Source: a virus
Direction: 5' to 3' (one strand)
DNA length: 57,421 nucleotides
Virus record (IMG/VR): IMGVR_UViG_3300031566_000036
Location: 1 to 57,421 of that record
Shown: positions 9,611 through 45,032 of the stretch, piece by piece
Layout of the letters: every line of letters starts with the position of its first letter
Position numbering within the stretch: the stretch's first letter is position 1
Program-made: the position numbers and the translations under genes
The notes under the pieces: generated by a model
What the model was told of the DNA's origin: nothing
The model's database searches: none
Seen by the model: the letters and a program-made list of their open reading frames with translations, nothing else

Positions 9611-12484
9611 TTAAAATTCCTCAGTCATATAGTCGGGCCGGTCGCCCATTTCCATTTCTTTTGAGTTCAACAATTCTTTTAAGAATTCAATAAATCGAGC
9701 AGTCTTTCGATAACCTCGACCGTCGCGCTGAAAAGCGTTCTTGCGTACGAACAGCGATATTAGTTGAGCGGTGTTTCCTTTGTCCCACCCGCACCAGTCA
9801 CTGACGTCACGAAACTCAATATCATTAGTATATAATAATTGCTTAACGAAGTCACGCGGGAACGGCGTTTGCATAATCCTCTTAGATAATAACTCAGGGG
9901 CAATCAAAACGTTACTTGCGTTGACCGCATCAGAAAAATCTTTGTAGCCAAAAATCCTGTTTGAATAAATTCTTTCAAGGAATTGCGAAATATATTTTAC
10001 GTGGCACTCTTTGACTTCAACAGTATGAAAGTCCTTATTTGAAAACGTTCGGCAGGCTAATGCAATCGCAAGTCGGCATAACTTAAACCGCATTGAGCCT
10101 CGGTCTATAATTGGAACAATCTCTGTAAAGATTGAACATAGCCGAGTTGCTTCAGACAAAATAATCTTAATCGCTTCAGGCGTAAAAGTCACTTGCTCCG
10201 CCGTTCGTGTCCACGCCCAAAGAATTAGACGGTGACTCAATTCTTCAGTACAAAAATGCTTTACCTTTGGGCGATACTGTTGTAAGTTATTTAGCACGTC
10301 AACTGAAATTTCTTCGGCCGATGTTAAAAGAACTGCGTCGAACCTACGAATGTCTTCAAGTCCACCAATCAATTCTTTAACTGCTTCGATTCCAAAATTA
10401 TAAGCGGACAGTGGTAAGTCACCTCGCGGATTGCTAACCATTATTAATCGGGTACGTGCGTGCGTTCTGCGTTTTTCAATCTTAGGTATTTCAGCAACAC
10501 CTGATGAACGCATGTCGGTAAGTTTTCCAATCACCTCAGTGCTCGTTCCCTTAATTTCTTCAAGTATCACTAAACGTTTATCGTGTGTTGGAATTACTCC
10601 CCACGTCACAAACCAACGATTGCCGGCACTCACCTGTTGGAGCCCACCTAAAAGCCCAGCAACTGTTGCATTTTTGCATTCGACGCGCTCACCTAAATTG
10701 TAGTGTTTCATTAAGCGAATTAAAGTTTCTGATTTACCTTGTGAACTGTCGCCTGCGATAAGCGTCTCGACCCATCCTTTAGTTAACTTGCCATCGAAGT
10801 TAAACAGTAGAGTGCTATGATACGTAAGGTCGATGATAAAATGTAAATCACTTCGCTCAAAGATATGTGTGACATTCGCTGATAGGTCTGCGTAAATTGA
10901 TTTTAGTTTTTCATCAATAGATTCGACTGTCCATTCTTTAGGCTGAAAAACATTCAAAGCTTTTAAGTCTGCGTCCGATGGTTGATAACTTGATAATGCG
11001 TCACACGTAGTTTCTGATTCGCTAATTAAAATTACTGACTGTTGGGTTTTCGGGTGTGGGTACATTCGACCGGTGAATTCATACCCTTCATTTGTCTCAA
11101 GCCCATGCCCGATGCATAAAGCGGGTTGTAGAATATCATCGACTGATCGTGAACTAATCTCAAGCTGCGGTGCAAGTCGAATATCTTCAACGTTAAAATA
11201 AGTCGTAGGCACAAATTCTACAACTTTGCATGTTGGTATTCTAAGACCGGCCATAATCGCGTCGCGTTGTGTAATTTTTGAAGTCGCGACCATTTCTAAA
11301 ATAGCGGGTGACTCTGGGTGTAGACTCATTTTGACAAAACCATTATCGTCAAGTGGTAATGCGAACACTGGACATACACTGCAGACCTTTTGGTCACGTG
11401 CACAAGATATTCGAATGTCTTTTGGTATTACATACGGTGCAGTGTCCATCGCTGCAACTGTCGCCTTTACTCGAATCCGTTTTCCGGTATGCTCTGCCCG
11501 TGACGCTTGATTCAAATGAAGGTCAAGTATTTCGCCCGTATTTTCAACGCTTAACTCAAACTTCGATTCCCATTCCGGCGTTGACCCAATGAGCTTTAAG
11601 AAGTCTTTATCAGTTTTCTTCTCGACTCCAAAATAATCATTCACGTCGCCCGTTGGATACTTATCAATGTCAAGTGGTAAGTCTATTTTATGAATACTAT
11701 TAACGTCTTTTTTAAGACGGGCGCATAACGAATCAGCCGACTTATTTCCTTCTTTATCAATGTCAAGACAAACGTATACATCTTTATCTTTGAAAGAAAG
11801 ATTAAATTTCGGGTCCCAGTTCCCCTCTCCCGCTGTTGCGGTAATCGCCCCAATGCCATGCTTATTTAATTTTGAGGCAGTGACAATCGCTTTTAATTCG
11901 CCACCACATATTATAATTGTTTTATATTTTAATTGCTCAAGCGGAAATAAACGAATGCTTCCGTGCCCACGTTTGTTTTTCATTTTCTCAGAACTTGGAG
12001 CGCCGGGCAAATAACGCCGAACGTTAACGATTAACCCATTACTATTTGTAATAGGAATAGAAATACGTCCGTCGTCAAGTCCTATTCGGTATTGTCGAAT
12101 AAGGTCGTCAGTGACACCGCGTTTATATAATTGCTTTAATAAAGGCTTTGCAGTCCATACAAGATTATGCCAACGCTCAACGGCACTACTATCTATGACT
12201 TTCACATTCTCAAATTCGTAGCGGGTCGATAAATCCTCAAACATTACGCGGCGTGTAGTGTTTAAGACCTTAGTTAAAAACGTAACTATGTCACCCGTAG
12301 CCTTACACCCGGCCGTGTGACAAATGAATAAGTTCTTTTTAACATTAATGCTACAACTTGGAGTTTTATCATCGTGAAAAGGACATAGTACTTTAACCTC
12401 GTCATCGGTCGCGAACTCGTATTTGCAACCGCACCGTTCCAATTCATTCAGTGCAGAGATTGATTGCAGTTGTCGGTCATCCAT
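9611..12484 (-). CDS. CHC2-Toprim primase fused to MCM-like AAA+ helicase
   Basis: 957 residues. The N-terminus has a CHC2-type zinc finger (C34, H37, C55, C60) and a Toprim domain with GGE (194-196) and DID (241-243), as in DnaG-type primases. A central region (about 335-460) has three cysteines (361, 368, 371). The C-terminal half is an AAA+ domain: Walker A GDSSQGKS (578-585), Walker B LVILEEI (638-644), sensor 1 MVSNPRG (682-688) and DIRRFDAVLL (711-720), which resembles the SRFD arginine-finger region of MCM helicases rather than RecA-type DnaB. Predicted role: primase-helicase at the phage fork. The start is ATG 12484, with a weak ribosome-binding site. Confidence 0.9.
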   Translation of the reverse strand: MDDRQLQSISALNELERCGCKYEFATDDEVKVLCPFHDDKTPSCSINVKKNLFICHTAGCKATGDIVTFLTKVLNTTRRVMFEDLSTRYEFENVKVIDSSAVERWHNLVWTAKPLLKQLYKRGVTDDLIRQYRIGLDDGRISIPITNSNGLIVNVRRYLPGAPSSEKMKNKRGHGSIRLFPLEQLKYKTIIICGGELKAIVTASKLNKHGIGAITATAGEGNWDPKFNLSFKDKDVYVCLDIDKEGNKSADSLCARLKKDVNSIHKIDLPLDIDKYPTGDVNDYFGVEKKTDKDFLKLIGSTPEWESKFELSVENTGEILDLHLNQASRAEHTGKRIRVKATVAAMDTAPYVIPKDIRISCARDQKVCSVCPVFALPLDDNGFVKMSLHPESPAILEMVATSKITQRDAIMAGLRIPTCKVVEFVPTTYFNVEDIRLAPQLEISSRSVDDILQPALCIGHGLETNEGYEFTGRMYPHPKTQQSVILISESETTCDALSSYQPSDADLKALNVFQPKEWTVESIDEKLKSIYADLSANVTHIFERSDLHFIIDLTYHSTLLFNFDGKLTKGWVETLIAGDSSQGKSETLIRLMKHYNLGERVECKNATVAGLLGGLQQVSAGNRWFVTWGVIPTHDKRLVILEEIKGTSTEVIGKLTDMRSSGVAEIPKIEKRRTHARTRLIMVSNPRGDLPLSAYNFGIEAVKELIGGLEDIRRFDAVLLTSAEEISVDVLNNLQQYRPKVKHFCTEELSHRLILWAWTRTAEQVTFTPEAIKIILSEATRLCSIFTEIVPIIDRGSMRFKLCRLAIALACRTFSNKDFHTVEVKECHVKYISQFLERIYSNRIFGYKDFSDAVNASNVLIAPELLSKRIMQTPFPRDFVKQLLYTNDIEFRDVSDWCGWDKGNTAQLISLFVRKNAFQRDGRGYRKTARFIEFLKELLNSKEMEMGDRPDYMTEEF

Positions 12485-32368: not shown

Positions 32369-33406
32369 TTACTCCTTTTTTATAGCCCAAAAATCACCTC
32401 TGGAGGCATTCGCAACTATTGGAAATACGATATAAGTTTCACCGTTTATTGTTAAAGTATCCTCGGCCGCAAGACCACCATATCCCGGTACGGCATAGCA
32501 GCCTTGCAACTCTCCAAATATATGATTATTCGGATTATTCATTGTCATAATTAAAGGAAACACGGGATATGAGCCGTCAATGTTTTCTCTTAAACTGTTA
32601 GTGAATATATTATCCGGACCATAAGAAGTATTCTCTGAAGATATATATGGCCAGACATTATTATCATTATATAAAGTTGATCCTTCCCTTCCTTTCATTC
32701 TTATCCAAGAAGTTCCTTGCATCACTTTTAATGTAGAATAATAACCTGTAATATCAAATGTTCCCTGTACTATCACACCCTCTGCATTAGCGTATGGATT
32801 TGGGAATGCTCGATGATCTGTCGCAACTGAACTATATCTATGATTCGCCACCGTGCTTATAGGGCATGCACTTCCACCAACAACCATCGGATACGGGAAT
32901 TGGGTCGGCAGTCCATAGGGCAAAGCAAAGCCTTGATATAAGCATTCATACACGCTGGAGATTTTAGCAACAACAACATATCTTCTGCCATTGCCTAAGA
33001 ACCAATACGGGATAGGATTTTCCCACATTAACATTCTTGGCAAACGACCTTGTGTCACGCCCGGCTGTAGAGAAATATCAACACCAGACGAATAGCCGGT
33101 CATCGCGGCCATACGCCAATTATAATAATCATCGCCGACATCTGAGTAGGTGTCAATCCAAGTATAAATTTCATCAACACCAGAGGTGCCAGGACCATGT
33201 GCAAACATTTCAGCTTCGCTGACGGCAGTATAACTATCAATCGTCCAAGCTTGTGAACTTCCACCGGAAGCAACGTCATCGTCAATTGCTACAAGCTCAT
33301 CCATATCAGGATGGTCACCAATTACTCTCGCGGGGTCACTGATAAAGTCTTTTAACCGTTCTAACAAATCGAGATAACCATCAGCTGTTCCAATTTCGTA
33401 AGCCAT
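32369..33406 (-). CDS. Virion/tail protein, paralog 2
   Basis: 345 residues, following the tape measure with overlapping stop/start (TAATG). It shares N- and C-terminal patterns with the 31363-32364 protein, while the middle differs, containing GYSSGVDISLQPGVTQG and many aromatic and Pro residues. Divergent middles with conserved ends suggest a common scaffold carrying variable surfaces. Function not assigned beyond virion structure. Confidence 0.75.
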   Translation of the reverse strand: MAYEIGTADGYLDLLERLKDFISDPARVIGDHPDMDELVAIDDDVASGGSSQAWTIDSYTAVSEAEMFAHGPGTSGVDEIYTWIDTYSDVGDDYYNWRMAAMTGYSSGVDISLQPGVTQGRLPRMLMWENPIPYWFLGNGRRYVVVAKISSVYECLYQGFALPYGLPTQFPYPMVVGGSACPISTVANHRYSSVATDHRAFPNPYANAEGVIVQGTFDITGYYSTLKVMQGTSWIRMKGREGSTLYNDNNVWPYISSENTSYGPDNIFTNSLRENIDGSYPVFPLIMTMNNPNNHIFGELQGCYAVPGYGGLAAEDTLTINGETYIVFPIVANASRGDFWAIKKE

Positions 33407-36231
33407 TATATGATTCCTTTTCTTCGTAGGAAATTCGTATATATTTTTTCGCCTGCGTCACTTGACATTGCTGCAAGAGCCTCATCTTGTGTCAATACAT
33501 TTACAACTTTTAACTTATTCACAACGGGAGCACTGGACTGTTGCTGCGCTTTAACACCTAATTTTCCATCAGCGCCACGTGACAGTGGCATCACTGCCTC
33601 GGGGCCAGCTTCACCCATTAAAGCCATTGGCGAAAGTGTAGGCCCATCGGTGACAAAACCATTCGCCATGGGAACTACTTTGCCAAGATTAAACATAGCA
33701 CCCATTGCATATTTACCAGTATTCAAAAAGTTTTGGCCTGTCGCTTCAGTTCCCGGCGTCCCTGCACTACCGGCAGCCGCAGGATTAAGCGCGCCAATCG
33801 CGGCCATTAACATTTTAGCTAACATCATCTTAATAATCATTTTATTAAGTTCGCCTAAAACACCCGCGACAAAACTTTTGAAGTTCGCAGTTCCGGTTGT
33901 TGCTAAGTCATTTAACGTGTTCGTTAAACCATCCAATGCTCCAACGGCTACATCTCCAAGATTTGCCCATAAGTTTGTAGCGTCACTTAACCATTGTTCT
34001 ATTTTTACGTTAAACGCTGAGACTCCGCGTTGACCCTCTTGAATTTCCTTTAATTTCTCAGCGTATAAATCCATCATAGCATTAAGTTGACGTTGACCTT
34101 CAACTGTTTTTAATATCTCAATACCAATCATTCTTTCAACAACTACTTGATACTCAGCCATCTTTACGGCGCGTTCACGCTCTTCTGGAATTTTGCCAAG
34201 TAAAGTTAATTCAAAATCTAATTCTTTGTTTAGTTGCTCAATGTTACGAGACGCTTCTAATGCTACGACTTCTTGTAACGCGTCCTTGTACTCTTTTAGT
34301 TTTTTGTTTACCCACTCTTGATTGTCAGGACTCTCGGCTAACGCTGCGTTTTGAAATGTGATTATATCCGTAGCGCGTTCGCGTAGTTCATTTCCTGCAA
34401 GCAGTAAAGTTTTTTCTTCTTTTAATGCAGCCATCATGTCTTTCATAATCTGGCTGCCAGCCTCGCCTTCAGCCTTTTGAACTGCTGAAGTAATAACTTG
34501 TTGGTCAACAACGCTTTGGTTGTAGTCATCAATTAATGCGAGACGTGCTTTTTCTTGTGTTAGTAAAATTATGTTATTTTCTATTTCTTGTTCTTTTGCT
34601 CTTTGCATTCGACCAACTGATGAACCCGTATCTTGACCATCCTTGATTATTTCTGGTATTCCGGCATACTCTGACATCTCGAACATTGGTTTTGCTTGTT
34701 TTGGTAACAGTTTATCTGCATTAGTTCGGATAATGCCCATCACTTCTCGGATACTTGCATACCCAGAGAGCACCTCTTTTATTCCTTGTACATAATCATC
34801 CCAATATCCGTCCCAACCTTCTCTAAAAGTTTTTGATTCTCCTGTAAGTACTTTCATCTCAGCTGCAATCGCACCTATATATCCCGCTATAGCAACGAAA
34901 GTAAGAGAAGCAGGTAACACCATAGAGCCCCAGAACAATTTTGCTGCCGCCGTTGCGCCTATCATTATACTCTTAATGCCTAAAATTGCAAACCCTAATT
35001 TTGAAAGGACAATTAATACTGGACCAATCGCAGCAGTGACACCGACGAGTCTAATTATGTACAGTTTTGTAGTATCACTTAGTTCCATCCACCATGTTGA
35101 TGCAGCTTTAAGATGCTCGCCCATTTTCAAAACGACTGGAGCTAACGTTGCACCAATGTCTTTTGCAACACCTTTTATATGATGCCAAGCAATTATCATT
35201 TGAGCTGTAAACGACTTTAAGTTCGCGGTCGCTAGCGCTTGCGTTCGACCACCTGCATTATTTAATCGCTCACCCCAGTTTCGAATCTCATCCGACATTC
35301 CAAGCAATGGAAGAATAACTTGTTGAGACCGCGCTGCGAATCCCAACATATCTAACGTTGCACTTTTTGTTTTAGCCGACATGCCTCCAAGAAGTACAGT
35401 CATGTCACCAATAACATCAGCAAGTGGTCTGAGATTTCCAGTTTCAACGTCGTATAATTCAAGACCGTATTTTTTCCATTCTGCGGCATTTTCACGAGCA
35501 CCCATCATCATAAAACGTAACATACGACCAAATGCAGAACCAGCCTCTGAACCTTTAATATTTTGCTTAGCATACGCGGCTAAAATTGCAGTACCTTCTT
35601 CGAGTTGAATACCCCAAGTTTTCATCGCTGCAGCTGCTTCATTTGTTAAAGCTTCAGCAAATTGAGAAATAGTTGCTTGTGATAATTCGTTAGCAGCAGT
35701 AAGTACATCTGTTACTCGTGTTAAGTTCTTTAAGTTTACTTCAGCATCTTTTGAAGTTAAAGCAAGTGCAGCCTGTGAACCAACAGCCATTTCTGTCGCT
35801 TGACTTAAATCAAAACTACCTGCTGTTGCGAAACGTTCAACAGCCGAAAGAGCCGTCATTGATTGTGTTGCGTTAAGTCCAGCTGAACCTAAGTAAAAGT
35901 AGGCTTTTGCTAAATCGGTCGAAGACTGTGTTGACTTTTTCGATAGCGCTCCGGCAGTCTGTTCCATCTTCTTTCGCATCTCATCAGACACGTCGCCGTA
36001 TAATGCGAGCGACTTTGTCATTGCATCATCGAAACTCGCGAACGCTTTAACTGAAGCAGCAGCTAATCCCACTAAGGGGAGAGTAACTCGCATAGTCATC
36101 GTTCGGCCAGCACGCCCCATTGCTTCAGACGTGGCACGCAACTTTTTCTCTGCCGTGTTTAGCATTGAAACAAACTGCGTACCATCCAAACGAAGATGCG
36201 CGATTAAATTACCGAGGTCCATTGTTGCCAT
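33406..36231 (-). CDS. Tail tape measure protein
   Basis: 941 residues. The N-terminus (DLGNLIAHLRLDGTQFVSML, then GRAGRTMTMRVTLPLVGLAAASVKAFASFDDAMTKSLAL) and the region up to about 300 (STDLAKAYFYLGSAGLNATQSM; SQATISQFAEALTNEAAAAM) match TP901-type tape measure proteins. A hydrophobic block lies at about 385-455. Residues 530-750 are long charged helices. The protein sets tail length. By the usual 0.15 nm per residue a tail of roughly 140 nm is expected. Confidence 0.95.
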   Translation of the reverse strand: MATMDLGNLIAHLRLDGTQFVSMLNTAEKKLRATSEAMGRAGRTMTMRVTLPLVGLAAASVKAFASFDDAMTKSLALYGDVSDEMRKKMEQTAGALSKKSTQSSTDLAKAYFYLGSAGLNATQSMTALSAVERFATAGSFDLSQATEMAVGSQAALALTSKDAEVNLKNLTRVTDVLTAANELSQATISQFAEALTNEAAAAMKTWGIQLEEGTAILAAYAKQNIKGSEAGSAFGRMLRFMMMGARENAAEWKKYGLELYDVETGNLRPLADVIGDMTVLLGGMSAKTKSATLDMLGFAARSQQVILPLLGMSDEIRNWGERLNNAGGRTQALATANLKSFTAQMIIAWHHIKGVAKDIGATLAPVVLKMGEHLKAASTWWMELSDTTKLYIIRLVGVTAAIGPVLIVLSKLGFAILGIKSIMIGATAAAKLFWGSMVLPASLTFVAIAGYIGAIAAEMKVLTGESKTFREGWDGYWDDYVQGIKEVLSGYASIREVMGIIRTNADKLLPKQAKPMFEMSEYAGIPEIIKDGQDTGSSVGRMQRAKEQEIENNIILLTQEKARLALIDDYNQSVVDQQVITSAVQKAEGEAGSQIMKDMMAALKEEKTLLLAGNELRERATDIITFQNAALAESPDNQEWVNKKLKEYKDALQEVVALEASRNIEQLNKELDFELTLLGKIPEERERAVKMAEYQVVVERMIGIEILKTVEGQRQLNAMMDLYAEKLKEIQEGQRGVSAFNVKIEQWLSDATNLWANLGDVAVGALDGLTNTLNDLATTGTANFKSFVAGVLGELNKMIIKMMLAKMLMAAIGALNPAAAGSAGTPGTEATGQNFLNTGKYAMGAMFNLGKVVPMANGFVTDGPTLSPMALMGEAGPEAVMPLSRGADGKLGVKAQQQSSAPVVNKLKVVNVLTQDEALAAMSSDAGEKIYTNFLRRKGII

Positions 36232-36234
36232 TAG

Positions 36235-36573
36235 TTACTTTCGTTTAATGCCTAAGAATCCTAACCATCTACTTTTTGAAGCTTCTGTTTTCTGCTCTAA
36301 CTTTTGCTTAACAAGAGTTTTTTCATCTACGAACTTAATTACGAAGTCACTCACCTTTGTCTTTCGTATTTCTGACTGCTTAATCCATGAGCGTCGAACT
36401 TCAGCCGTAAGCTGTGCAATGTACATGTAAAGTGCGCTAAATCTATTCGGCTCTTCATTTAAGTATACAATCCAGTCAGTAAATTCTAATGAGCTCGTAG
36501 TCCGTTTTACATATTGAATAGGTGAATGAAGATGAGAGGCTAAACGGAACCAGCTTAACCTCTCACCCGTCAT
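36235..36573 (-). CDS. Tail assembly chaperone, -1 frameshift extension (gpT-like)
   Basis: Its 112 codons are most likely translated mainly as the C-terminal part of a fusion with the upstream 36570-36914 gene through the -1 slip at 36576-36582, giving about 226 residues. It also has its own ATG at 36573, overlapping the upstream TGA. It is basic near the end (KQKLEQKTEASKSRWLGFLGIKRK). In siphophages the fusion binds the tape measure protein while the short form coats it. Confidence 0.85.
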   Translation of the reverse strand: MTGERLSWFRLASHLHSPIQYVKRTTSSLEFTDWIVYLNEEPNRFSALYMYIAQLTAEVRRSWIKQSEIRKTKVSDFVIKFVDEKTLVKQKLEQKTEASKSRWLGFLGIKRK

Positions 36574-36582
36574 TCGTTTTTT
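36532..36582 (-). promoter_or_regulatory. Programmed -1 ribosomal frameshift signal
   Basis: The heptamer A-AAA-AAC at 36582-36576 is in the upstream frame (GCA AAA AAC GAA TGA). Nine bases downstream a stem of 14 pairs (36566-36553 with 36545-36532) with a 7-nt loop forms in the RNA. Slipping back one base continues in the frame of the next gene (CGA ATG ACG). Confidence 0.92.
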
Positions 36583-36914
36583 GCTTCTTCCTTCGACTTC
36601 TCAGACAAACCGTTAATGTCTTGAGCTGCATCAAATAAAGCACTTAGGACTACTGCTGGAAACTTTGATACCTCTGCTTCGGGAACCTGCTTACCTTCTG
36701 AATCAAGCAAGCACATACTGACGAGCTTCGACTGCACACCCGTGAACTTTTTGGTCTTTCCTTCGCCCATTCTTTCGTTGACAAAGTCAAACCACTCGTC
36801 GCGTCGTTGACCGTCGAAACCCGACAGTACATAATTTTTTGGTATGCCATCTTTGTCTGTTAAAGTCACAGGGTTAAACGGTAATACTAACGAAAAATCT
36901 AATGCCTTACTCAT
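36570..36914 (-). CDS. Tail assembly chaperone (gpG-like)
   Basis: 114 residues starting at ATG 36914 behind AAAGGATTTAG. It lies between the tail tube and tape measure genes, where siphophages encode chaperone G. The sequence (MSKALDFSLVLPFNPVTLTDKDG...GFDGQRRDEWFDFVNERM) has the acidic, helical C-terminal part expected. The last codons are GCA AAA AAC GAA TGA, which form the slippery site described at 36532-36582. Confidence 0.9.
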   Translation of the reverse strand: MSKALDFSLVLPFNPVTLTDKDGIPKNYVLSGFDGQRRDEWFDFVNERMGEGKTKKFTGVQSKLVSMCLLDSEGKQVPEAEVSKFPAVVLSALFDAAQDINGLSEKSKEEAKNE

Positions 36915-36945: not shown

Positions 36946-37389
36946 TTATGCTGCCGCAGTGTAATCAGGTGCCGTCTCTACACCGGCGTCAGTCTGATTG
37001 CTCGGGACAATTGTTACTGTCGCTGTAGGTTGCTCGCCTTCAACGATGTTGCCCGGTATGAACTTATCAAGCCATCCGTAAAAGGCTACAGTCGATGTGT
37101 CCGGGAACGTGATAGTAATAAGCTGGTTATCTTTAATCATGTCTACAATATCATCGTAGAACTTCGCGTCGTAGCTTACGACTAAGGTCATCGGCGTCAT
37201 TGTGATAAGTTTCTTTGGTGCCTTTGTTCTGTACAAAGTGTTTCTCATCGTCGTTGTGTCAGTTTCGCCGCCAGCGTCCATCCCAGGAGGAGTTATTTCT
37301 TTCTCCCAAAACGTTATGCCGGGGCCTGTTCCACTTCCTTGGTCTCCGAACGCGATAGTCGTTGCGAAGCCGTCATCAATTCTACTCAT
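36946..37389 (-). CDS. Major tail tube protein
   Basis: 147 residues starting at ATG 37389 behind GAAAGGAATT. Mostly beta strands with Thr, Val and Pro-rich loops (EITPPGMDAGGETDTTTMRN, TPMTLVVSYDAKFYDDIVDMI, DNQLITITFPDTSTVAFYGWL), ending in a disordered Asp/Ala tail. Length, position between tail terminator and chaperones, and fold pattern match siphovirus tail tube proteins. Confidence 0.88.
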   Translation of the reverse strand: MSRIDDGFATTIAFGDQGSGTGPGITFWEKEITPPGMDAGGETDTTTMRNTLYRTKAPKKLITMTPMTLVVSYDAKFYDDIVDMIKDNQLITITFPDTSTVAFYGWLDKFIPGNIVEGEQPTATVTIVPSNQTDAGVETAPDYTAAA

Positions 37390-37408: not shown

Positions 37409-37858
37409 TTATACTTCTTCTAATGTCACGTTAAAGTTCAACTCGAACTTATATCTTCTTTTGGTTCCCGACTCAGTGCCGAGATTTAGAACGCCACTGA
37501 ATTTTGTTGCTGCCCAAAAATAGTATGAGTTTGTACCCACTATTACTGCGACTTTTTGGACATCGCTTAAATCGGTTAAAACACTTTTTAGTTTCAAATA
37601 ACCTGTCTCATAGTCTAATGCTCTTAATTGTATAATGATTCCGTAATGCTTAAAATTTTCGCCGGACGACATGTCCCGGCTATTTATAACATCTTGAGAA
37701 TCGTTTACACATGCAGCGTTATCTTCAACGTTATTTCCATCAGGTAATGACATTTCATATAAAGGCCAGTCGCCACTACTGCTTGGCAGGGTAAATAGTT
37801 CCTGAGCGACTAAATACGTTTTCAAAATCAAACAAGATGTATCAGATAAATTAGCCAT
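37409..37858 (-). CDS. Tail terminator-like protein
   Basis: The start chosen is ATG 37858, directly overlapping the stop of the giant gene (TGATG). 149 residues. A single alpha/beta domain: N-terminal helix (CLILKTYLVAQELFTLP), then HYGIIIQLRALDYETGYLKLK and a C-terminal strand pair (SGTKRRYKFELNF). Placed between neck and tube genes it fits a tail terminator (gpU-like). The same domain forms the C-terminus of the upstream 1520-residue protein. Confidence 0.75.
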   Translation of the reverse strand: MANLSDTSCLILKTYLVAQELFTLPSSSGDWPLYEMSLPDGNNVEDNAACVNDSQDVINSRDMSSGENFKHYGIIIQLRALDYETGYLKLKSVLTDLSDVQKVAVIVGTNSYYFWAATKFSGVLNLGTESGTKRRYKFELNFNVTLEEV

Positions 37859-40800
37859 CAATTCGTACGAGTCAAATGCTTCAAAATACTATCAAAATTT
37901 AATGTAAATAAATAACGCCGTTTCGTTGTCCCTACCTCTTGTCCTAAAGAAATAATACCGGACATATTCGAAAAGCAAACAATTCTGTAAGTCTCTAAAT
38001 CATCAAGTATTATTATTTCATTTTTTACAGTTTCTAATAAAGCCAGAATTGCTTTTATCTTCGCTTTACCTGTCTCATAATTGGATGCTCTGATTTTTAT
38101 CTGTAAACCATAATGCGTAGTTGGATATGATATTCTAATTCTTGTTTCAAGTCTCGGAGTCGTATCATATATGGCGCACGCGTTATTTATAACATCTGGC
38201 AAAGATGATGTGTATATAGGCCAACCGCTTTCTAAACTTGGCAAAGAAACAATAGCCTCAGCAATTAAATACGCGCCTATAATGTAACAAGGTGAAAATG
38301 CTAACACATCATCAATATCATAAGTTGCTGATACGACTGTAACCGCAGAGCTGTCTGTTAAGTCTAATTCATCGTACACAGATATGTCGAGCTGTGTGCC
38401 ATTTACTATTTCAGTATAATCAGTAACTTCAATACTATCTACGACAAGAATTTCATAAACGGGAATTAAAACATTAGTTTCATCACTAACTCCAACATTG
38501 TCAACTACTAATATTTCCAGTATAGAAATGTGTGCAGATATTCCATCAGATAAAACAATGTCATCAGCAACGTCCACCTCCAAAACGCCAATAACACTTG
38601 CTACAATATCTACTTCATCAGCAATACCAATATCGTCATAAACAGAAACTTCAAGTGTAGAAATACTAATCGCTGAAATATCGGTAATACCTATATTGTC
38701 AGTGACTAACACTTCAAAGGTTGAAATTTGTATCGTTATCGCATCGGCAACAACCACATTATCATATACAGATATTTCATAGACAGCGATTTGAACGTCT
38801 ACTTCATCACTAACTCCAACATCATCAGAAACAGACAGGTCGTAGAAATTTAATGAGCCAGCGACAGTTTCTGTTACTTGAACATTATCAAATACATAAA
38901 CATTCAAAGTACCAATATCTTGACGGATTGCTGTGACACCATCTGTAAGACCTACTATATCACTGATTACAATCTCAAGTAACGGATAGAACGTATCAAC
39001 TGATTCAGTTATTCCTATGTCATCAGCAACGGCAACCACAAGAACCGGCTCAAGCACTTCAATAACATCCGTAAGGCTAATTGTGTCACTAACAGATACT
39101 TCAAGAATCGAAATCTCTATGGCCGTTTCGTCACTTACTCCTACAGCATCACTTACCAGCACTTCCAAGATAGGAATAGATGCCGTTATATCATCAGAAA
39201 CGCCAATGGAATCAGACGCTAAAATCTCAAGAACTGGAATTGAGGCTTCCGTTACATCACTCAGACCGACAGTGTCTGACACATAAACATCAAGGATATT
39301 CGCTGCATCTTCGATAAATAAATGATCTATGACAAAACTATGTGTTGGGTTTCCTGGAGAGACATGATTAAACCTAACCCTTAGTTTACCGTCTGATATG
39401 TAGTCAATGTCATTTATCAGATTAAAGCTATAAGATTCTTCAACCGCACTTGATGGAAAATCATTTGCACTGGCAGTTACATTCACCCAGTCCAATATGT
39501 TGTAATTGTATTGCTGTAACTTAACAATGTGGGATGGATTTCCTATATAGTGACCAACCATGTTAAGCTGCATATTAGGGTCAGGAACAGAATAGTCACC
39601 ACCAAATTCAAACTCAAAATCAAATCCGGGCGTGCCTGTCACTTCGTCTATAATCAGTTCATTGTCATCTTCTGAATAAACGTCTATTAAACTACCAGAA
39701 CCTATCGTGTCTAATGGGACAGTAACCGTTATGGAAGTGGGCAAGAACCAAGGAACTACAACCTGACCAGTTACATTCTCTGTTACTACAATTGCATCGC
39801 TGACATATACTTCATAAACTGCAATCTGTACATCAGTTTCGTCACTTACTCCAACATTATCAGCAACTGTCAATTCGTAAAGATTCAACCGACTTGTAAC
39901 ATCTTCTGCTACTTGAATATCGTCATACACATAAACATTCAAAGTAGCAGCGTCTTGACGGATTGCTGTGATGCCATCCGTAAGTCCTATGGCCTCACTA
40001 ACAGCAATTTCCAGTAATGGATAATATGTCTCAACTGACTCGGTTATGCCTATAGCATCGAATACAGCAACTTCCAAGACTGGGATGAGGACTTCAGTTT
40101 CATCAGTAACAGCAATCGAATCACTAACTGATACCTCAAGAATAGAAATCTCAACAACAACACTATCGCTCAATCCAATATCATCAGTAACCGAAACCTC
40201 GTACAGAGATAAAGCTAATTCAACATCATCCGATACCCCGATGCCATCACTTACTGCCACTTCCAGTAATGGCATCTCGTTGACTACAATATCTTGAACT
40301 GCTACATCATCAAAAATGCTGACATTATATAATGGCAACTCGTGGTCACTTAGGTCTGTAACACTAATCAAATCGCTGACATATATCTCGTACAAATCCA
40401 GTTCCGAAACAGCCTCATCGGACAGACCTACATCATCATAAACATAAACTTCTAATGCTCCTGATATGGCAACGACAACTTCATCGGACACGCCAACTAA
40501 ATCTGAAACACTTACTTCAAGAATTGGAATCGAGGCGGAAACATCATCGGCAACGCCGATATTGTCGCTGACGTTTACTGATAATACACCGGCGCCAGGA
40601 ATTTCGACAGCAACATCTTCGGCAAGACCGATGGCATCATTGACGTTAATTTCATGGATTAAATTCAGTGACAATTTATATATTGATATTGGACTGGTGT
40701 AAGTAGAAACAAATAAAAATCCAGAATGAAAGGAAACTTCATTTGGAGAAGTTCCATTAAAAGCGTATGTCGTAAATTCATCTGTTGCAGGGTCTATGCG

Positions 40801-42420
40801 CACAAGATAGCCTGGTGTGCCTGCATATAAGGCCCAAATCCATGTGCCATCGTAAAATGTGCCATAGCATGACGTTGACCGTCCAGTATCAATATTTGTA
40901 ATGTCTGAAAGGTCAGATTTGGAAATTTTCAAAACATTATGTGTTCCTCCTTCGAGTCCAACCCACACATGATTAGCCGTAAAGGCCAAATCATCCGTAG
41001 GGCCGCCTGTAAAAGCTTGGTTTATCTCAGACAAATCAGAAGGGGCTATTTTTAGTATAGAAGACCCCGCAATTGTAGTTGTACCATACAGGTTTGTTCC
41101 ATCAAACCCTAAAGCATGACCAGAAGCTTTTGACAGAGATGTATTAGCATCAGCCACAGCCCACGTTGACATATCATATTTGACAATAGAAGCTTCACCA
41201 AAACACAAAACGTACAAATATGATTCGTCTGTTGCGATAGAACCGTTGTCACAATCATAACCTGTATCTTGTATTACATCAGAAGCACTCAGGTCGGAAG
41301 GATTGACCTCAGATACGGCAATTCTGCCACTTTCCAAATGAAGTGCATATAATTTCTCTTTTGTGGAGCTATAAATCAAATCATATACACCACCATGATT
41401 GCCATCGTCGGGAAATGTTTTTACAGTGTAATCGGATAAATCAGAGGCGTTTATTTTAAGTAACTTACCGGGGTTTACTACAAGACCAACATACACATAG
41501 CCGTTCAGATAGACCATCGAATAAGGTGTATCTTCGCCGGAAGCGTAAGTGTGACTGTCATATTCAAAAAGACTACATGCTTCGGAAACATCATCGGCAA
41601 CGCCGATATTGTCGCTGACGTTTACTGATAAAGCACCGGCAGAGACGATTTCTATGGAGACAGCATCCGTCAAACCGATAAGTGAAAATACCAGAACCAT
41701 CAGAATTGGAATCTGGACGCTGGGTGTATCTGCTACGCCTATATCATCAAAGACATTGACTTCAAGCGGTGGCGGAGCTACCTCGTTCCACGCACCCATT
41801 ACCCAGTTAAAGTCATCGGAAGTACCGCCGCTGACGTAGGTATGCGTTACCGTTGCTGGGCCGCTCACCGGTAATGAGTACGCCGCACCGGTCTGCATGC
41901 TACCTTCGTCAATACTTGGCGTAGTAAGAAGGGTTATTCCTGTTGTAATTGAAGCAAATTGGTCCTTTTCACCGTGAGTCATGCAGGAGACACAGACTGA
42001 ATCTGCCGGTACTGAAGCTATCGAACATGCAACATTAGCACCACTGCTATCAGAAGCTCCACCAGAATTGAAGAAGGAGGCATTTGCACCTGAATTAGTA
42101 AAGTCAACACAGCAATATCTTAAATTTTGAGAAGTAGCAGCATTGGGAATAACTACCGTCTTCTCAACAGAAGCAACCGGCGAGAGATAATACCATATCT
42201 CTGTGCCGCCCTCCGCAGATAATTGCGTAGAGCCACACTGCGTCATGGCCTGCCCATCGTAGGTAGGCGTTCCGGAAGTTACTTTGGCGGCAGCATTGGT
42301 CGCATTACATATAGTAAGAACGACCAGCTTGCTATTAGCTCCCGCTGTAAACGGAAAACTAATAGAAGCATCAGAACTTAATGCAGTAACTTTACCAGCA
42401 CTGTTATAGGTGAATGCCAT
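37858..42420 (-). CDS. Giant repeat virion protein fused to a second tail-terminator-like domain
   Basis: 1520 residues starting at ATG 42420. N-terminal beta-rich domain (about 1-215). About 32 copies of a 21-22-residue repeat of the form LEVxVSDxIGVSDExxxxIPI occur at about 218-280, 590-885 and 1040-1365. A beta-propeller-like block (about 285-590, repeated LxKIxxSDLSD) and another beta domain (about 885-1040) interrupt the array. The C-terminus (about 1370-1520) is clearly homologous to the whole 37409-37858 protein: LRALDYETGYLKLK against IRASNYETGKAKIK, and SGTKRRYKFELNF against GTTKRRYLFTLNF. Probably a fibre or decoration carried at the head-tail region. Confidence 0.85.
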   Translation of the reverse strand: MAFTYNSAGKVTALSSDASISFPFTAGANSKLVVLTICNATNAAAKVTSGTPTYDGQAMTQCGSTQLSAEGGTEIWYYLSPVASVEKTVVIPNAATSQNLRYCCVDFTNSGANASFFNSGGASDSSGANVACSIASVPADSVCVSCMTHGEKDQFASITTGITLLTTPSIDEGSMQTGAAYSLPVSGPATVTHTYVSGGTSDDFNWVMGAWNEVAPPPLEVNVFDDIGVADTPSVQIPILMVLVFSLIGLTDAVSIEIVSAGALSVNVSDNIGVADDVSEACSLFEYDSHTYASGEDTPYSMVYLNGYVYVGLVVNPGKLLKINASDLSDYTVKTFPDDGNHGGVYDLIYSSTKEKLYALHLESGRIAVSEVNPSDLSASDVIQDTGYDCDNGSIATDESYLYVLCFGEASIVKYDMSTWAVADANTSLSKASGHALGFDGTNLYGTTTIAGSSILKIAPSDLSEINQAFTGGPTDDLAFTANHVWVGLEGGTHNVLKISKSDLSDITNIDTGRSTSCYGTFYDGTWIWALYAGTPGYLVRIDPATDEFTTYAFNGTSPNEVSFHSGFLFVSTYTSPISIYKLSLNLIHEINVNDAIGLAEDVAVEIPGAGVLSVNVSDNIGVADDVSASIPILEVSVSDLVGVSDEVVVAISGALEVYVYDDVGLSDEAVSELDLYEIYVSDLISVTDLSDHELPLYNVSIFDDVAVQDIVVNEMPLLEVAVSDGIGVSDDVELALSLYEVSVTDDIGLSDSVVVEISILEVSVSDSIAVTDETEVLIPVLEVAVFDAIGITESVETYYPLLEIAVSEAIGLTDGITAIRQDAATLNVYVYDDIQVAEDVTSRLNLYELTVADNVGVSDETDVQIAVYEVYVSDAIVVTENVTGQVVVPWFLPTSITVTVPLDTIGSGSLIDVYSEDDNELIIDEVTGTPGFDFEFEFGGDYSVPDPNMQLNMVGHYIGNPSHIVKLQQYNYNILDWVNVTASANDFPSSAVEESYSFNLINDIDYISDGKLRVRFNHVSPGNPTHSFVIDHLFIEDAANILDVYVSDTVGLSDVTEASIPVLEILASDSIGVSDDITASIPILEVLVSDAVGVSDETAIEISILEVSVSDTISLTDVIEVLEPVLVVAVADDIGITESVDTFYPLLEIVISDIVGLTDGVTAIRQDIGTLNVYVFDNVQVTETVAGSLNFYDLSVSDDVGVSDEVDVQIAVYEISVYDNVVVADAITIQISTFEVLVTDNIGITDISAISISTLEVSVYDDIGIADEVDIVASVIGVLEVDVADDIVLSDGISAHISILEILVVDNVGVSDETNVLIPVYEILVVDSIEVTDYTEIVNGTQLDISVYDELDLTDSSAVTVVSATYDIDDVLAFSPCYIIGAYLIAEAIVSLPSLESGWPIYTSSLPDVINNACAIYDTTPRLETRIRISYPTTHYGLQIKIRASNYETGKAKIKAILALLETVKNEIIILDDLETYRIVCFSNMSGIISLGQEVGTTKRRYLFTLNFDSILKHLTRTN
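38325..40655 (-). repeat. 63-66-bp tandem repeat array inside the giant gene
   Basis: Most repeat units of the giant protein are coded here in two blocks (about 39766-40655 and 38325-39300), interrupted by a non-repeat domain (about 39301-39765). Each unit codes for about 21-22 residues. The stretch of about six units at 39770-40145 and that at 38730-39105 match unit for unit (both include GLTDGxTAIRQD), so a segment of roughly 0.4 kb was duplicated after the single unit had multiplied. Confidence 0.85.
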
Positions 42421-42438: not shown

Positions 42439-42639
42439 TCACGGATATTGTCGTCCCGTACTCAAATCAATTTCTTCGATTGTCATAGTTGGTTGCAAAT
42501 GCGGCAAATAATAATCAGCACTTGATGCATTACAACTTTTAACTAAATGTTCAATGAGAACAAATTCGCTTTCCGTGAGTGTAAGTTCAAAAGTAGTAGT
42601 GGTCTCATTGCCAATGACTTCAATTTTATACTTTTTCAT
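42439..42639 (-). CDS. Small hypothetical protein (66 aa)
   Basis: The start chosen is ATG 42639 (MKKYKIEVIGNETTTTF), overlapping the TGA of the upstream glycosyltransferase; GGGGAAA lies about 12 bases upstream. It has a beta hairpin-like N-terminus (KIEVIGNE, TTFELTLTESEF) and ends IDLSTGRQYP. The last 11 codons form a direct DNA repeat with the end of the upstream gene. Function unknown. Confidence 0.7.
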   Translation of the reverse strand: MKKYKIEVIGNETTTTFELTLTESEFVLIEHLVKSCNASSADYYLPHLQPTMTIEEIDLSTGRQYP

Positions 42640-43409
42640 GGAAATTGTTTCCCCGTACTCAATTCGATATGCTTGCAAAATATGTTCGTATCACAGAGAA
42701 ACGGATACTTCTTCCTGCCAATCTTAGGCCAACCAGAACGCTTCAAGACATCCTCTTTGATAACACGGTTGCACCAGTTCAAATCAGACGTACCACTACC
42801 TGAAGCGAAAGAGTTTGTATCTCGGTCGTAATAACATTTTGAAGGTGTCTCAAAGACTTTCCTCGTCTTCCTGCCACCAACGGTTTCGTACTCCTCGCTC
42901 TCATTCCACATCAACTTGATAATCGAATTGTGAATCAAAAGAAATCCCGTTGGCACGCCATCGGCCCAGACCTTATCACCTACTTTGAAATCCTCGTAAG
43001 CACCTCTACCTAAGCCTCTGTAAAGAATCGGCTCAGTATAGTTGCTTTTGAGATAATACAGACCACTCACAACCGGAACATCACCTTTCTTCATATACTG
43101 ATTCAATTGCAGGAAGGCATCTGGAGGAGCAATTACATCATCTTCCCACAAGAGCATCCATTCATAACCTTGATTGACTACATCCTCACAACCGAAGTTC
43201 TGAGCATCAGCAACAAGAAAGTGCAAAGGAACAGTGCAACCTATACCCAATGAACGACCACCTGCCGACCAGTTGCACGGTGTAGGCTGACCATATCTGG
43301 ACATAGCCCATTCAATGCGGATAAGGCCCAACGTGGCAGTGACAATCAGTAATCTATTTCTTGGATTTCCGTCGACTCCGCTTTTTATTATCTTTGTTTT
43401 TTCCAACAT
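42636..43409 (-). CDS. Glycosyltransferase-like protein (GT-A)
   Basis: The start is taken as ATG 43409 (MLEKTKIIKSG) with AGGTG 4 bases upstream. The frame extends to 43469. About 257 residues. The strand RLLIVTATLGLIRIEWAMSRYG, then WMLLWEDDVIAPPDAFLQL with the EDD metal motif, and later GVPTGFLLIHNSI and SDLNWCNRVIKED, fit GT-A glycosyltransferases common in phage structural regions. Acceptor unknown. It could decorate the repeat protein coded next door. Confidence 0.8.
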   Translation of the reverse strand: MLEKTKIIKSGVDGNPRNRLLIVTATLGLIRIEWAMSRYGQPTPCNWSAGGRSLGIGCTVPLHFLVADAQNFGCEDVVNQGYEWMLLWEDDVIAPPDAFLQLNQYMKKGDVPVVSGLYYLKSNYTEPILYRGLGRGAYEDFKVGDKVWADGVPTGFLLIHNSIIKLMWNESEEYETVGGRKTRKVFETPSKCYYDRDTNSFASGSGTSDLNWCNRVIKEDVLKRSGWPKIGRKKYPFLCDTNIFCKHIELSTGKQFP

Positions 43410-43497
43410 CGTCACCTGACTTGACAGGTGCGGTTTTGACGGTTTCGGTAATTTCGACAGCGACTGCATCAGTTATCTTAGCTCCATCACTTGACAT
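43354..43497 (-). CDS. Possible small basic protein overlapping the glycosyltransferase start (47 aa)
   Basis: The ATG at 43497 overlaps the TAA of the methyltransferase gene and has AAGGAA 7 bases upstream, the best ribosome-binding site in the region. The frame codes MSSDGAKITDAVAVEI..., ending in a Lys/Arg-rich tail, and overlaps the glycosyltransferase gene by 56 bases in another frame. It could instead be a coupling device for that gene. Too short to assign. Confidence 0.45.
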   Translation of the reverse strand: MSSDGAKITDAVAVEITETVKTAPVKSGDDVGKNKDNKKRSRRKSKK

Positions 43498-44096
43498 TAT
43501 TTATTTCCTTTCTTCGGTGACATTTCAACCGAATCATCTTTTCTCTGCTCAGGAAGTTTGGCCGGAATAACGGGCTTTCCTTTTTTGTCCTTGCGAGGCT
43601 CCAGTATCATCTCAATACAACCGTTCAAAGAGAACACGCTCCTGACTATCTTCCACGGCAGAGGCTTCTTGTAACTGCAACTATGCCACAGTTGAAAGTC
43701 AGGATCAAAGAACTGGAACGTTGCCTCATTGGGACACATATAGTGTGCAGGATGAGCGGCTTCTAAATAACTACCAGCATAAGGACAACTTAAAAGCAAC
43801 TGTCCATCATGCCTGCAAATTCGCCACAGTTCATCCATCACTGCAAACCTATACTTCGGCTCTATGTGTTCCCAGATATGCGACATCAAAACCTGAAAGC
43901 AACTGTTATCAGGCACAGGCCACGGGAATTGTTGGATGTCGTGAACTATATCAACGCCGGGTTGCTTGTACTGGTCTAATCCAACAAATCCCTTCTGCTT
44001 AAATTGCCCACAGCCTATATCAAGTTTGATACCACTGGCCTTCTGGAATAAAGCCCTGTTTATTCTCTTTGCCATCAGCCAAAATGTCCTTTCCAT
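43497..44096 (-). CDS. Class I SAM-dependent methyltransferase
   Basis: 199 residues. SAM motif I KLDIGCGQFKQKGFVGLD (about 24-41), acidic motif around VDIVHDIQ, post-motif MSHIWEHIEP and LLLSCPYAGS, the layout of methyltransferase type 11 proteins. Substrate unknown; sugar or protein side chains are possible. The start at 44096 has a weak ribosome-binding site. ATG at 44075 is an alternative. It lies with a glycosyltransferase inside the structural operon, suggesting virion modification. Confidence 0.85.
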   Translation of the reverse strand: MERTFWLMAKRINRALFQKASGIKLDIGCGQFKQKGFVGLDQYKQPGVDIVHDIQQFPWPVPDNSCFQVLMSHIWEHIEPKYRFAVMDELWRICRHDGQLLLSCPYAGSYLEAAHPAHYMCPNEATFQFFDPDFQLWHSCSYKKPLPWKIVRSVFSLNGCIEMILEPRKDKKGKPVIPAKLPEQRKDDSVEMSPKKGNK

Positions 44097-44104
44097 TGTC
44101 TATC

Positions 44105-44566
44105 TTAGCTCGTCGAATAACGCCATTCGTAAGTACAGTTCACGGACTGTGTAGTGGCCAATGCCGAAGAAGCAAAAGTCTTGCCTGCCAGTAACGAACC
44201 AGTCGAGGCAGCAAATACTCCAATATTAGCAAGGGTCACTGCGCCTTCCGAACCGTCAAAGCTCTGCGACATCCGGGCAGTCAGACTGTCAATAACTGAA
44301 CTCTGTCCAAAAGTCGAATAGTAATCAGTGCCATGACTGGAATCGAGAGCTACGGCATCAGACGCCGGATTTGTGCCGCTGCCTAACAAAAGTCCAGCAG
44401 CTTGAACCGAAGCGGCACCGATAGGAGCGGCAACAATGCAACTGTTCAAACCGTAGTTAGTAATCTGGTTTTCAAACCAACCAGAATCACCAACCACCTT
44501 TTTCGACTTCTTGTCTACGATTTGCAAACGAGCAAATCCTTTAATACCAATTTTTCTTTTTTTCAT
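44105..44566 (-). CDS. Virion-associated hypothetical protein (153 aa)
   Basis: Starts at ATG 44566 behind AAGGAACAAGAAA. A basic N-terminus (MKKRKIGIKGFARLQIVDKK) is followed by a beta-rich, Ala/Ser/Gly-rich body (GLLLGSGTNPASDAVALDSS, ...SQSFDGSEGAVTLANIGVFA). The same pattern is common in phage structural proteins resembling receptor or fibre-associated modules. Located between neck genes and the giant repeat protein. Confidence 0.7.
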   Translation of the reverse strand: MKKRKIGIKGFARLQIVDKKSKKVVGDSGWFENQITNYGLNSCIVAAPIGAASVQAAGLLLGSGTNPASDAVALDSSHGTDYYSTFGQSSVIDSLTARMSQSFDGSEGAVTLANIGVFAASTGSLLAGKTFASSALATTQSVNCTYEWRYSTS

Positions 44567-44585: not shown

Positions 44586-45032
44586 TTATTTTATTTCCGC
44601 TGCAATAATTGCTAACATTTCAGTTCGTTTAGTTCTTGCCGGTGTTTCTAAAAACTTAGCTTGCTGTTCTTCGCCACGATTAAATAGTCCGCCGGCTGCG
44701 GTTCTTGCTTTTTTACTCGCATTCGCAATTTCATCTGCATGTTTAACATTAAACTCTTTACCGTGTGCTTTATCTAAATCTTCATGTACGTAAGCTGCAT
44801 ACTCAGCGGTATACCCAACAGTGACGTCTGTTTGAAGTCCAGAGCCTTGACTTCGAGTAAACGCTGAATTTGCTAAATTACCCAATTGTCTTGGTACAAT
44901 TTTTTGACTTTCACGTTGCAAAAATAAGCCACCTTTTTTAAGTCCACGACCAGCGTCATTTTTTATATCAGTGGTCGCACCTTTTAATTTACTAAGCACT
45001 TGAGGAAGGCCTTTTAATTCAAACATTTTCAT
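44586..45032 (-). CDS. HK97 gp10-like neck/tail-completion protein
   Basis: 148 residues. The helix LPQVLSKLKGATTDIKNDAG, then a conserved LANSAFTRSQGSGLQTDVTVGYTAEYAAYVHEDLD and a C-terminal helical region match HK97 gp10-type proteins, which join tail and connector. The start overlaps the previous stop (ATGA). Confidence 0.88.
   Translation of the reverse strand: MKMFELKGLPQVLSKLKGATTDIKNDAGRGLKKGGLFLQRESQKIVPRQLGNLANSAFTRSQGSGLQTDVTVGYTAEYAAYVHEDLDKAHGKEFNVKHADEIANASKKARTAAGGLFNRGEEQQAKFLETPARTKRTEMLAIIAAEIK

What the first reader, a model, noticed from the sequence alone, without database searches (positions are those of the whole stretch)
37409..42420. 1520-residue repeat protein ends in a copy of the tail terminator-like protein
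The C-terminal ~150 residues of the giant protein align along their whole length with the complete 149-residue protein encoded directly downstream. A neck/tail terminator domain therefore exists both free and as the anchor of a long repeat fibre. This suggests a tandem duplication followed by fusion to a repeat array, perhaps a fibre or whisker placed at the tail terminator ring.
Basis: partly seen in the sequence, partly recalled or inferred. Interest (0 to 1): 0.75.

Follow-up and report, generated by a model that had tools for sequence, protein, structure and literature searches.

The report
Long phage fibre fused to tail terminator
In a group of uncultivated tailed phages, the small protein that caps the top of the tail tube has been duplicated and repeatedly fused to large adhesin-like proteins, here a 1,370-residue repeat array, so the phages probably carry host-binding fibres at the neck as well as at the tail tip.

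Summary
The last ~148 residues of the 1520-aa protein align end to end with the complete 149-aa product of the next gene (37% identity, E=2e-26). The giant's C-terminal domain (T1) folds confidently (pLDDT 94.8) as a phage tail terminator, and both copies lie in the canonical terminator position, directly before the tail-tube gene. The giant is intact in a second metagenome, and a diverged 1666-aa giant plus separate terminator occurs in a third virus. About 80 relatives, all uncultivated, show a graded series: single plain terminator; terminator with a ~30-aa N-terminal extension when a fibre-gene cassette sits upstream; tandem terminators, the first always extended; and repeated fusions to Ig-like, beta-helix, propeller or sandwich domains, on either side of the terminator domain. 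T1's closest relative (72% identical) is an unfused terminator, and another virus encodes the giant's N-terminal and island domains as a free protein just upstream of its terminator. So duplication came first and fusion later. Best reading: T1 anchors a glycan-binding fibre at the neck ring, in a mixed ring or beside the free copy. Virion location and stoichiometry are inferred. This is a new variant of neck fibres/decorated tail proteins.

The parts
37858..42420 (-). giant fibre-terminator protein, 1520 aa
   Evidence: intact in L003; homologue of 1666 aa in L013
41767..42420 (-). N-terminal domain, residues 1-218
   Evidence: 46% identical to the N terminus of a free 1279-aa protein in L063
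41566..41766 (-). first short block of 21-residue repeats (~3 copies)
40660..41565 (-). propeller-like region, residues ~286-587, seven repeats by inspection
   Evidence: 29% identical to LR756504.1, E=3e-20; propeller assignment by eye, no Pfam hit
39766..40659 (-). second block of 21-residue repeats (~14)
39295..39765 (-). CBM4/CBM29-like beta-sandwich domain, residues 886-1042
   Evidence: homologues in L013, L063, L092-L096; AF2 pLDDT mostly 65-96 in this part; PDB matches to CBMs and to phi812 baseplate chains
38317..39294 (-). third block of 21-residue repeats (~15)
   Evidence: beta-rich but low confidence
37861..38316 (-). T1: tail terminator domain at the C terminus of the giant, residues 1369-1520
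37409..37858 (-). T2: free tail terminator, 149 aa, start overlaps the stop of the giant
36946..37389 (-). probable major tail (tube) protein, 147 aa
   Evidence: position between terminator and assembly chaperone genes; conserved in about 80 loci; no confident family hit
36570..36914 (-). tail assembly chaperone
   Evidence: phrog_344 E=1.6e-7
33406..36231 (-). tape measure protein
   Evidence: phrog_1533 E=1.2e-47
44586..45032 (-). HK97-gp10-like tail completion/neck protein; usual upstream neighbour of the terminator
   Evidence: phrog_5 E=2.7e-11; synteny
42636..44566 (-). cassette inserted between gp10-like gene and giant: fibre-like protein, methyltransferase, glycosyltransferase-like protein
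   Evidence: phrog_4176, methyltransferase families; the last two also precede the giant of L013; glycosyltransferase by eye only

Best explanation
The 1520-aa protein is a neck-anchored adhesin fibre. Shown: its C-terminal ~150 residues are a tail terminator paralogue (T1), followed by a second, free terminator (T2); the rest is ~32 21-residue repeats, a CBM-like beta-sandwich, a propeller-like region and an N-terminal domain. Inferred: T1 assembles into the terminator ring at the head-proximal end of the tail tube, either mixed with T2 in one hexamer or as a second ring, so that the repeat array projects outward and presents its glycan-binding-type domains at the neck. Duplication freed one copy to carry the fibre while the other keeps the plain tail-capping role. 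In relatives the same fibre is a separate protein that probably docks on a ~30-aa N-terminal extension of T1; in this phage it is covalently fused.
For: Homology of T1 and T2. T1 AF2 model pLDDT 94.8, pTM 0.89; best PDB matches are phage terminators or connectors: Douge Z 14.2, Bxb1 13.7, T5 p142 11.7, lambda gpU 10.2. 59/68 members hit PF12691. In relatives with a terminator hit it lies just upstream of the tail-tube gene. N-extension correlates with an upstream fibre cassette: 8 of 9 loci with cassette against 1 of 37 without, Fisher p=3e-7. Fusions of at least 80 aa to the terminator: 10 of 72 distinct domains, at least 4 changes forced on the tree, against 0/46 for the gp10-like neighbour and 2/69 for the tube protein. 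Separate parts: L063 has the giant's N-terminal and island domains in a free 1279-aa protein 3 nt upstream of an Ig-Ig-T1 protein; L010 has unfused T1 and T2. Purifying selection on T1 (dN/dS 0.24) and T2 (0.13). T1 stop and T2 start overlap or abut in the tandem loci inspected. The same island domain is inserted in a head-tail adaptor protein in L095.
Against: No virion, mass-spectrometry or microscopy data exist for any member; there are no isolates. The repeat array could not be modelled reliably (pLDDT ~45), so 'fibre' is inferred from repeats. Ligand binding is untested. A single terminator hexamer may not tolerate six ~1,370-residue appendages. Cleavage releasing T1 is not excluded. The N-extension correlation is not corrected for phylogeny.
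Confidence: 0.72

Rival explanations
1. The giant is a distal-tail or baseplate fibre; T1, whose fold is of the tube/terminator/Dit superfamily, docks at the tail tip or along the tube instead of the neck.
For: Terminator, tube and distal tail proteins share folds (PMC7296036, PMC11784142); the CBM-like island also resembles a phi812 baseplate protein.
Against: T1 groups by sequence with free terminators at the terminator locus (72% identical to an unfused one), and PDB matches are terminators, not Dit. The gene lies in the neck module, away from the tail-tip genes.
Confidence: 0.12
2. T1 is cleaved from the giant, or is only a passive fusion partner; the fibre works elsewhere or is a soluble decoy.
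For: In L010 and L063 fibre-like proteins and T1 are separate polypeptides, so a covalent link is not essential.
Against: Fusions recur with unrelated partners and in both orientations; selection keeps T1 intact. Cleavage sites were not tested.
Confidence: 0.1
3. T1 forms a second ring, stacked on the T2 ring as a sleeve or spacer of the neck, and the fibre is secondary.
For: Two terminator-like copies per virus; T1 lacks the conserved loop T and E residues in 8 of 8 pairs while T2 keeps each in 4 of 8, so surfaces may have diverged; PVC16 caps carry a duplicated terminator domain (PMC11784142).
Against: The split of conserved sites is not statistically significant with 8 pairs; many single-terminator viruses carry extensions or fusions without a second copy.
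Confidence: 0.2
4. Assembly artefact or lost stop codon with no biological meaning.
For: Only metagenomic contigs.
Against: Same intact ORF in two samples, homologous 1666-aa giant in a third, several other fusion architectures.
Confidence: 0.02

Closest known systems
Neck passage structure (NPS) of lactococcal 936 and P335 siphophages (PMC6669499)
   Same: Neck/collar fibres ending in carbohydrate-binding modules, serving as auxiliary host binders
   Different: NPS is proposed to use a BppU-like N-terminal ring on the portal/connector and coiled-coil trimers; here the anchor is a tail terminator domain at the C terminus
Phage 812 stopper and terminator decoration proteins and neck whiskers (PMC12886913)
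   Same: The outside of the stopper/terminator rings carries extra proteins; whiskers at the neck
   Different: Separate proteins bound non-covalently; no terminator paralogue as anchor
Tail terminators gpU, T5 p142, SPP1 gp17, PF12691 (PMC11784142)
   Same: Fold, size, gene position of T1 and T2
   Different: Known siphophage terminators are single small proteins; here one copy carries ~1,370 extra residues
PVC16 cap with duplicated terminator-like domain (PMC11784142)
   Same: Duplicated terminator fold
   Different: Duplication within one chain of a contractile injection system, no fibre
CBM-bearing 'evolved' Dit and extended major tail proteins (PMC6669499)
   Same: Structural tail proteins extended with adhesin domains
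   Different: Different ring: distal end or tube, not terminator

Membership tests
Phage tail terminator (PF12691 and relatives) | Terminator fold | tested here: met
   T1 model against Bxb1 9d94 Z 13.7, rmsd 2.5 over 130 residues; T5 p142 Z 11.7; gpU Z 10.2
Phage tail terminator (PF12691 and relatives) | Sequence profile match | tested here: met
   59 of 68 members at E up to 0.01, best 2.4e-13; T1 itself E=2.7e-4, under the curated cut-off; T2 alone no hit
Phage tail terminator (PF12691 and relatives) | Gene between neck/gp10-like and major tail protein | tested here: met
Phage tail terminator (PF12691 and relatives) | Hexameric ring capping the tube | not testable with these tools
   no multimer prediction or virion data
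Neck passage structure (lactococcal NPS) | BppU-like N-terminal collar domain | not tested
   HMM scans of Pfam and PHROGs show no such hit, but no direct profile comparison was run
Neck passage structure (lactococcal NPS) | Carbohydrate-binding module on a neck fibre | tested here: inconclusive
   CBM-like fold of residues 886-1042; binding and location unknown

The most novel reading that the evidence does not exclude
In this uncultivated siphophage lineage the tail terminator ring is a general adhesin platform: paralogous terminators co-assemble (mixed hexamer or double ring), one plain and one bearing docked or covalently fused host-binding fibres, and this has arisen repeatedly.
Probability: 0.45. 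Interest if true: 0.75.

Novelty: new variant of a known kind. Interest (0 to 1): 0.62.

Why it matters
It would show that the ring that stops tail growth and joins the head can be duplicated and turned into an anchor for long glycan-binding fibres. That makes two questions testable: how a terminator ring handles unequal subunits, and how phages place adhesins away from the tail tip. The many graded relatives give natural intermediates (plain, extended, tandem, fused).

Tried and rejected
No isolate relatives: the terminator, tube protein or giant gave no match in 50,697 phage records except the propeller-like region in LR756504.1. No relatives of the tube protein in GTDB genomes with two pattern scans, so the host is unknown. 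The alignment of nine terminators was too diverse for a pattern scan; the tube protein was used instead. AF2 of residues 870-1370 failed for the repeats (pLDDT ~45), so matches of that part to beta-helix enzymes were ignored. A separate internal start for T1 was sought: only GTG codons without a clear ribosome-binding site. Complementary loss of conserved sites between T1 and T2 is suggestive but not significant. One single duplication for all tandem pairs was rejected by the tree: starred branches force at least 6 label changes, though gene conversion could mimic this. The N-terminal domain alone found only two viral loci. Papers on terminator duplication or on Ig/CBM fusions of terminators: none found in the held library.

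Full report
OBSERVATION. The minus-strand ORF 37858-42420 encodes 1520 residues, and 37409-37858 encodes 149 residues from an ATG that overlaps the giant's stop codon (TGATG). Residues 1373-1516 of the giant align with residues 4-149 of the small protein at 37% identity, E=2e-26, score 231 against at most 51 in 1000 shuffles. The same giant with 3 amino-acid differences is present in an independent metagenome contig. The finding is real and correctly placed.

WHAT THE GIANT CONTAINS. From the N terminus: a domain of ~218 residues, three repeats, a region of seven propeller-like repeats (by inspection; 29% identical to a stretch of huge-phage record LR756504.1), ~14 repeats of 21 residues, a beta-sandwich (886-1042), ~15 further repeats, and the terminator domain T1. 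The beta-sandwich resembles CBM4/CBM29 modules and phi812 baseplate chains (VIA Z ~10-12). The repeats are predicted beta-rich but with low confidence.

TERMINATOR IDENTITY. The AF2 model of residues 1366-1520, with 68 sequences in the alignment, has pLDDT 94.8 and pTM 0.89. Foldseek and VIA-align return mainly phage terminators and connectors: mycobacteriophage Douge (Z 14.2), Bxb1 (13.7), T5 p142 (11.7), lambda gpU (10.2). 59 of 68 family members match Phage_tail_terminator_6. Downstream come a probable tube protein, tail assembly chaperone and tape measure; upstream an HK97-gp10-like protein. The virus is therefore most likely a siphophage with two terminator copies, one inside the giant.

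COMPARATIVE EVIDENCE. A search with the tube protein gave about 80 related loci in IMG/VR, none in isolates or GTDB genomes. A profile of the terminator found it just upstream of the tube gene in nearly all (a few short or cut loci had no hit). Four states occur. (1) Single plain terminator abutting the gp10-like gene. (2) Terminator with a ~30-residue N-terminal extension, often with a motif like TGG[VL]F, when a 3-5 kb cassette of fibre-like genes lies between gp10 and terminator: 8 of 9 against 1 of 37 without the cassette, p=3e-7. (3) Tandem terminators, the first always extended (eight distinct loci); their stop and start codons overlap or abut. (4) Fusions: window 1520 aa; L013 1666 aa plus a separate 144-aa terminator; Ig-like pairs (L063), repeats (L017, L072, L078, L079), beta-helix-like (L030), and on the other side of the domain a propeller (L042-L044, DUF6923 E=1.3e-6) and a sandwich-like domain (L027) (Ig-like, helix-like and sandwich-like are readings by eye). 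Fusions of at least 80 residues affect 10 of 72 distinct terminator domains and need 4 to 7 changes on the tree; the neighbouring gp10-like protein has 0 of 46 and the tube protein 2 of 69.

ORDER OF EVENTS. The window's T1 is sister to an unfused 183-aa T1 in L010/L011 (72% identity, support 100/100), and T2 to their T2 (100/98). So the duplication preceded the split of these viruses and the fusion came later or was lost in L010. L063 has a free 1279-aa protein sharing the N-terminal domain (46%) and island (48%) with the giant, ending 3 nt before an Ig-Ig-T1 protein. L013's giant is 38% identical over 848 columns but has a different N-terminal domain and a different propeller-like region: the tip is exchanged while the shaft and anchor are kept, as in many phage fibres. 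T1 has a lower synonymous divergence from L010 than T2 or the tube gene, which suggests recombination of the T1 module. Tandem pairs arose more than once or were homogenised.

MECHANISM. Most likely T1 joins the terminator ring and holds the fibre at the neck, while T2 supplies plain subunits. Known terminators form hexamers on the tube (PMC11784142). Whether T1 and T2 form one mixed ring or two rings is open; T1 has lost conserved loop residues that T2 keeps in half the pairs, but the numbers are too small. The island domain also occurs inside a head-tail adaptor protein in L095, a second neck position, which fits a neck-decoration role. Fibre location, ligand and stoichiometry are inferred.

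KNOWN SYSTEMS. Neck fibres with CBMs are known from lactococcal phages (PMC6669499), and decorated terminators from phage 812 (PMC12886913). I found no published case of a terminator paralogue as the covalent anchor of a long fibre, within an open-access library only. I rate it a new variant of a known kind.

Noticed in passing
window 9611-12484 (-): 957-aa replication protein with DnaG-type zinc ribbon, Toprim and a weak MCM-like P-loop match (E=5.5e-4, below cut-off): a possible primase-MCM fusion.
   Followed up: no
L095:3739-4530: Head-tail adaptor-like protein with the CBM-like island domain inserted in the middle, directly upstream of gp10-like and terminator genes.
   Followed up: partly
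L011:612-4897, L012:2472-7210, L020:3440-6805: Fibre-cassette proteins begin with signal-peptide-like N termini, odd for phage virion proteins.
   Followed up: no
L020:3440-6805: 1121-aa cassette protein with a GDSL lipase/esterase domain (E=1.1e-12), possibly a depolymerising or deacetylating enzyme at the neck.
   Followed up: no
window 42636-44096 (-); L013:295-1893: Methyltransferase and glycosyltransferase-like genes lie directly upstream of the giant in both giant-bearing viruses, so the fibre may be glycosylated.
   Followed up: no
L078:1324-3555: Tube protein with a 598-residue C-terminal extension.
   Followed up: no
L012:7217-7543: A second copy of the head-tail adaptor lies between the fibre cassette and the terminator.
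   Followed up: no
L042:5015-6706 (also L043, L044): Terminator followed by a C-terminal propeller-like repeat domain, with no second terminator.
   Followed up: partly
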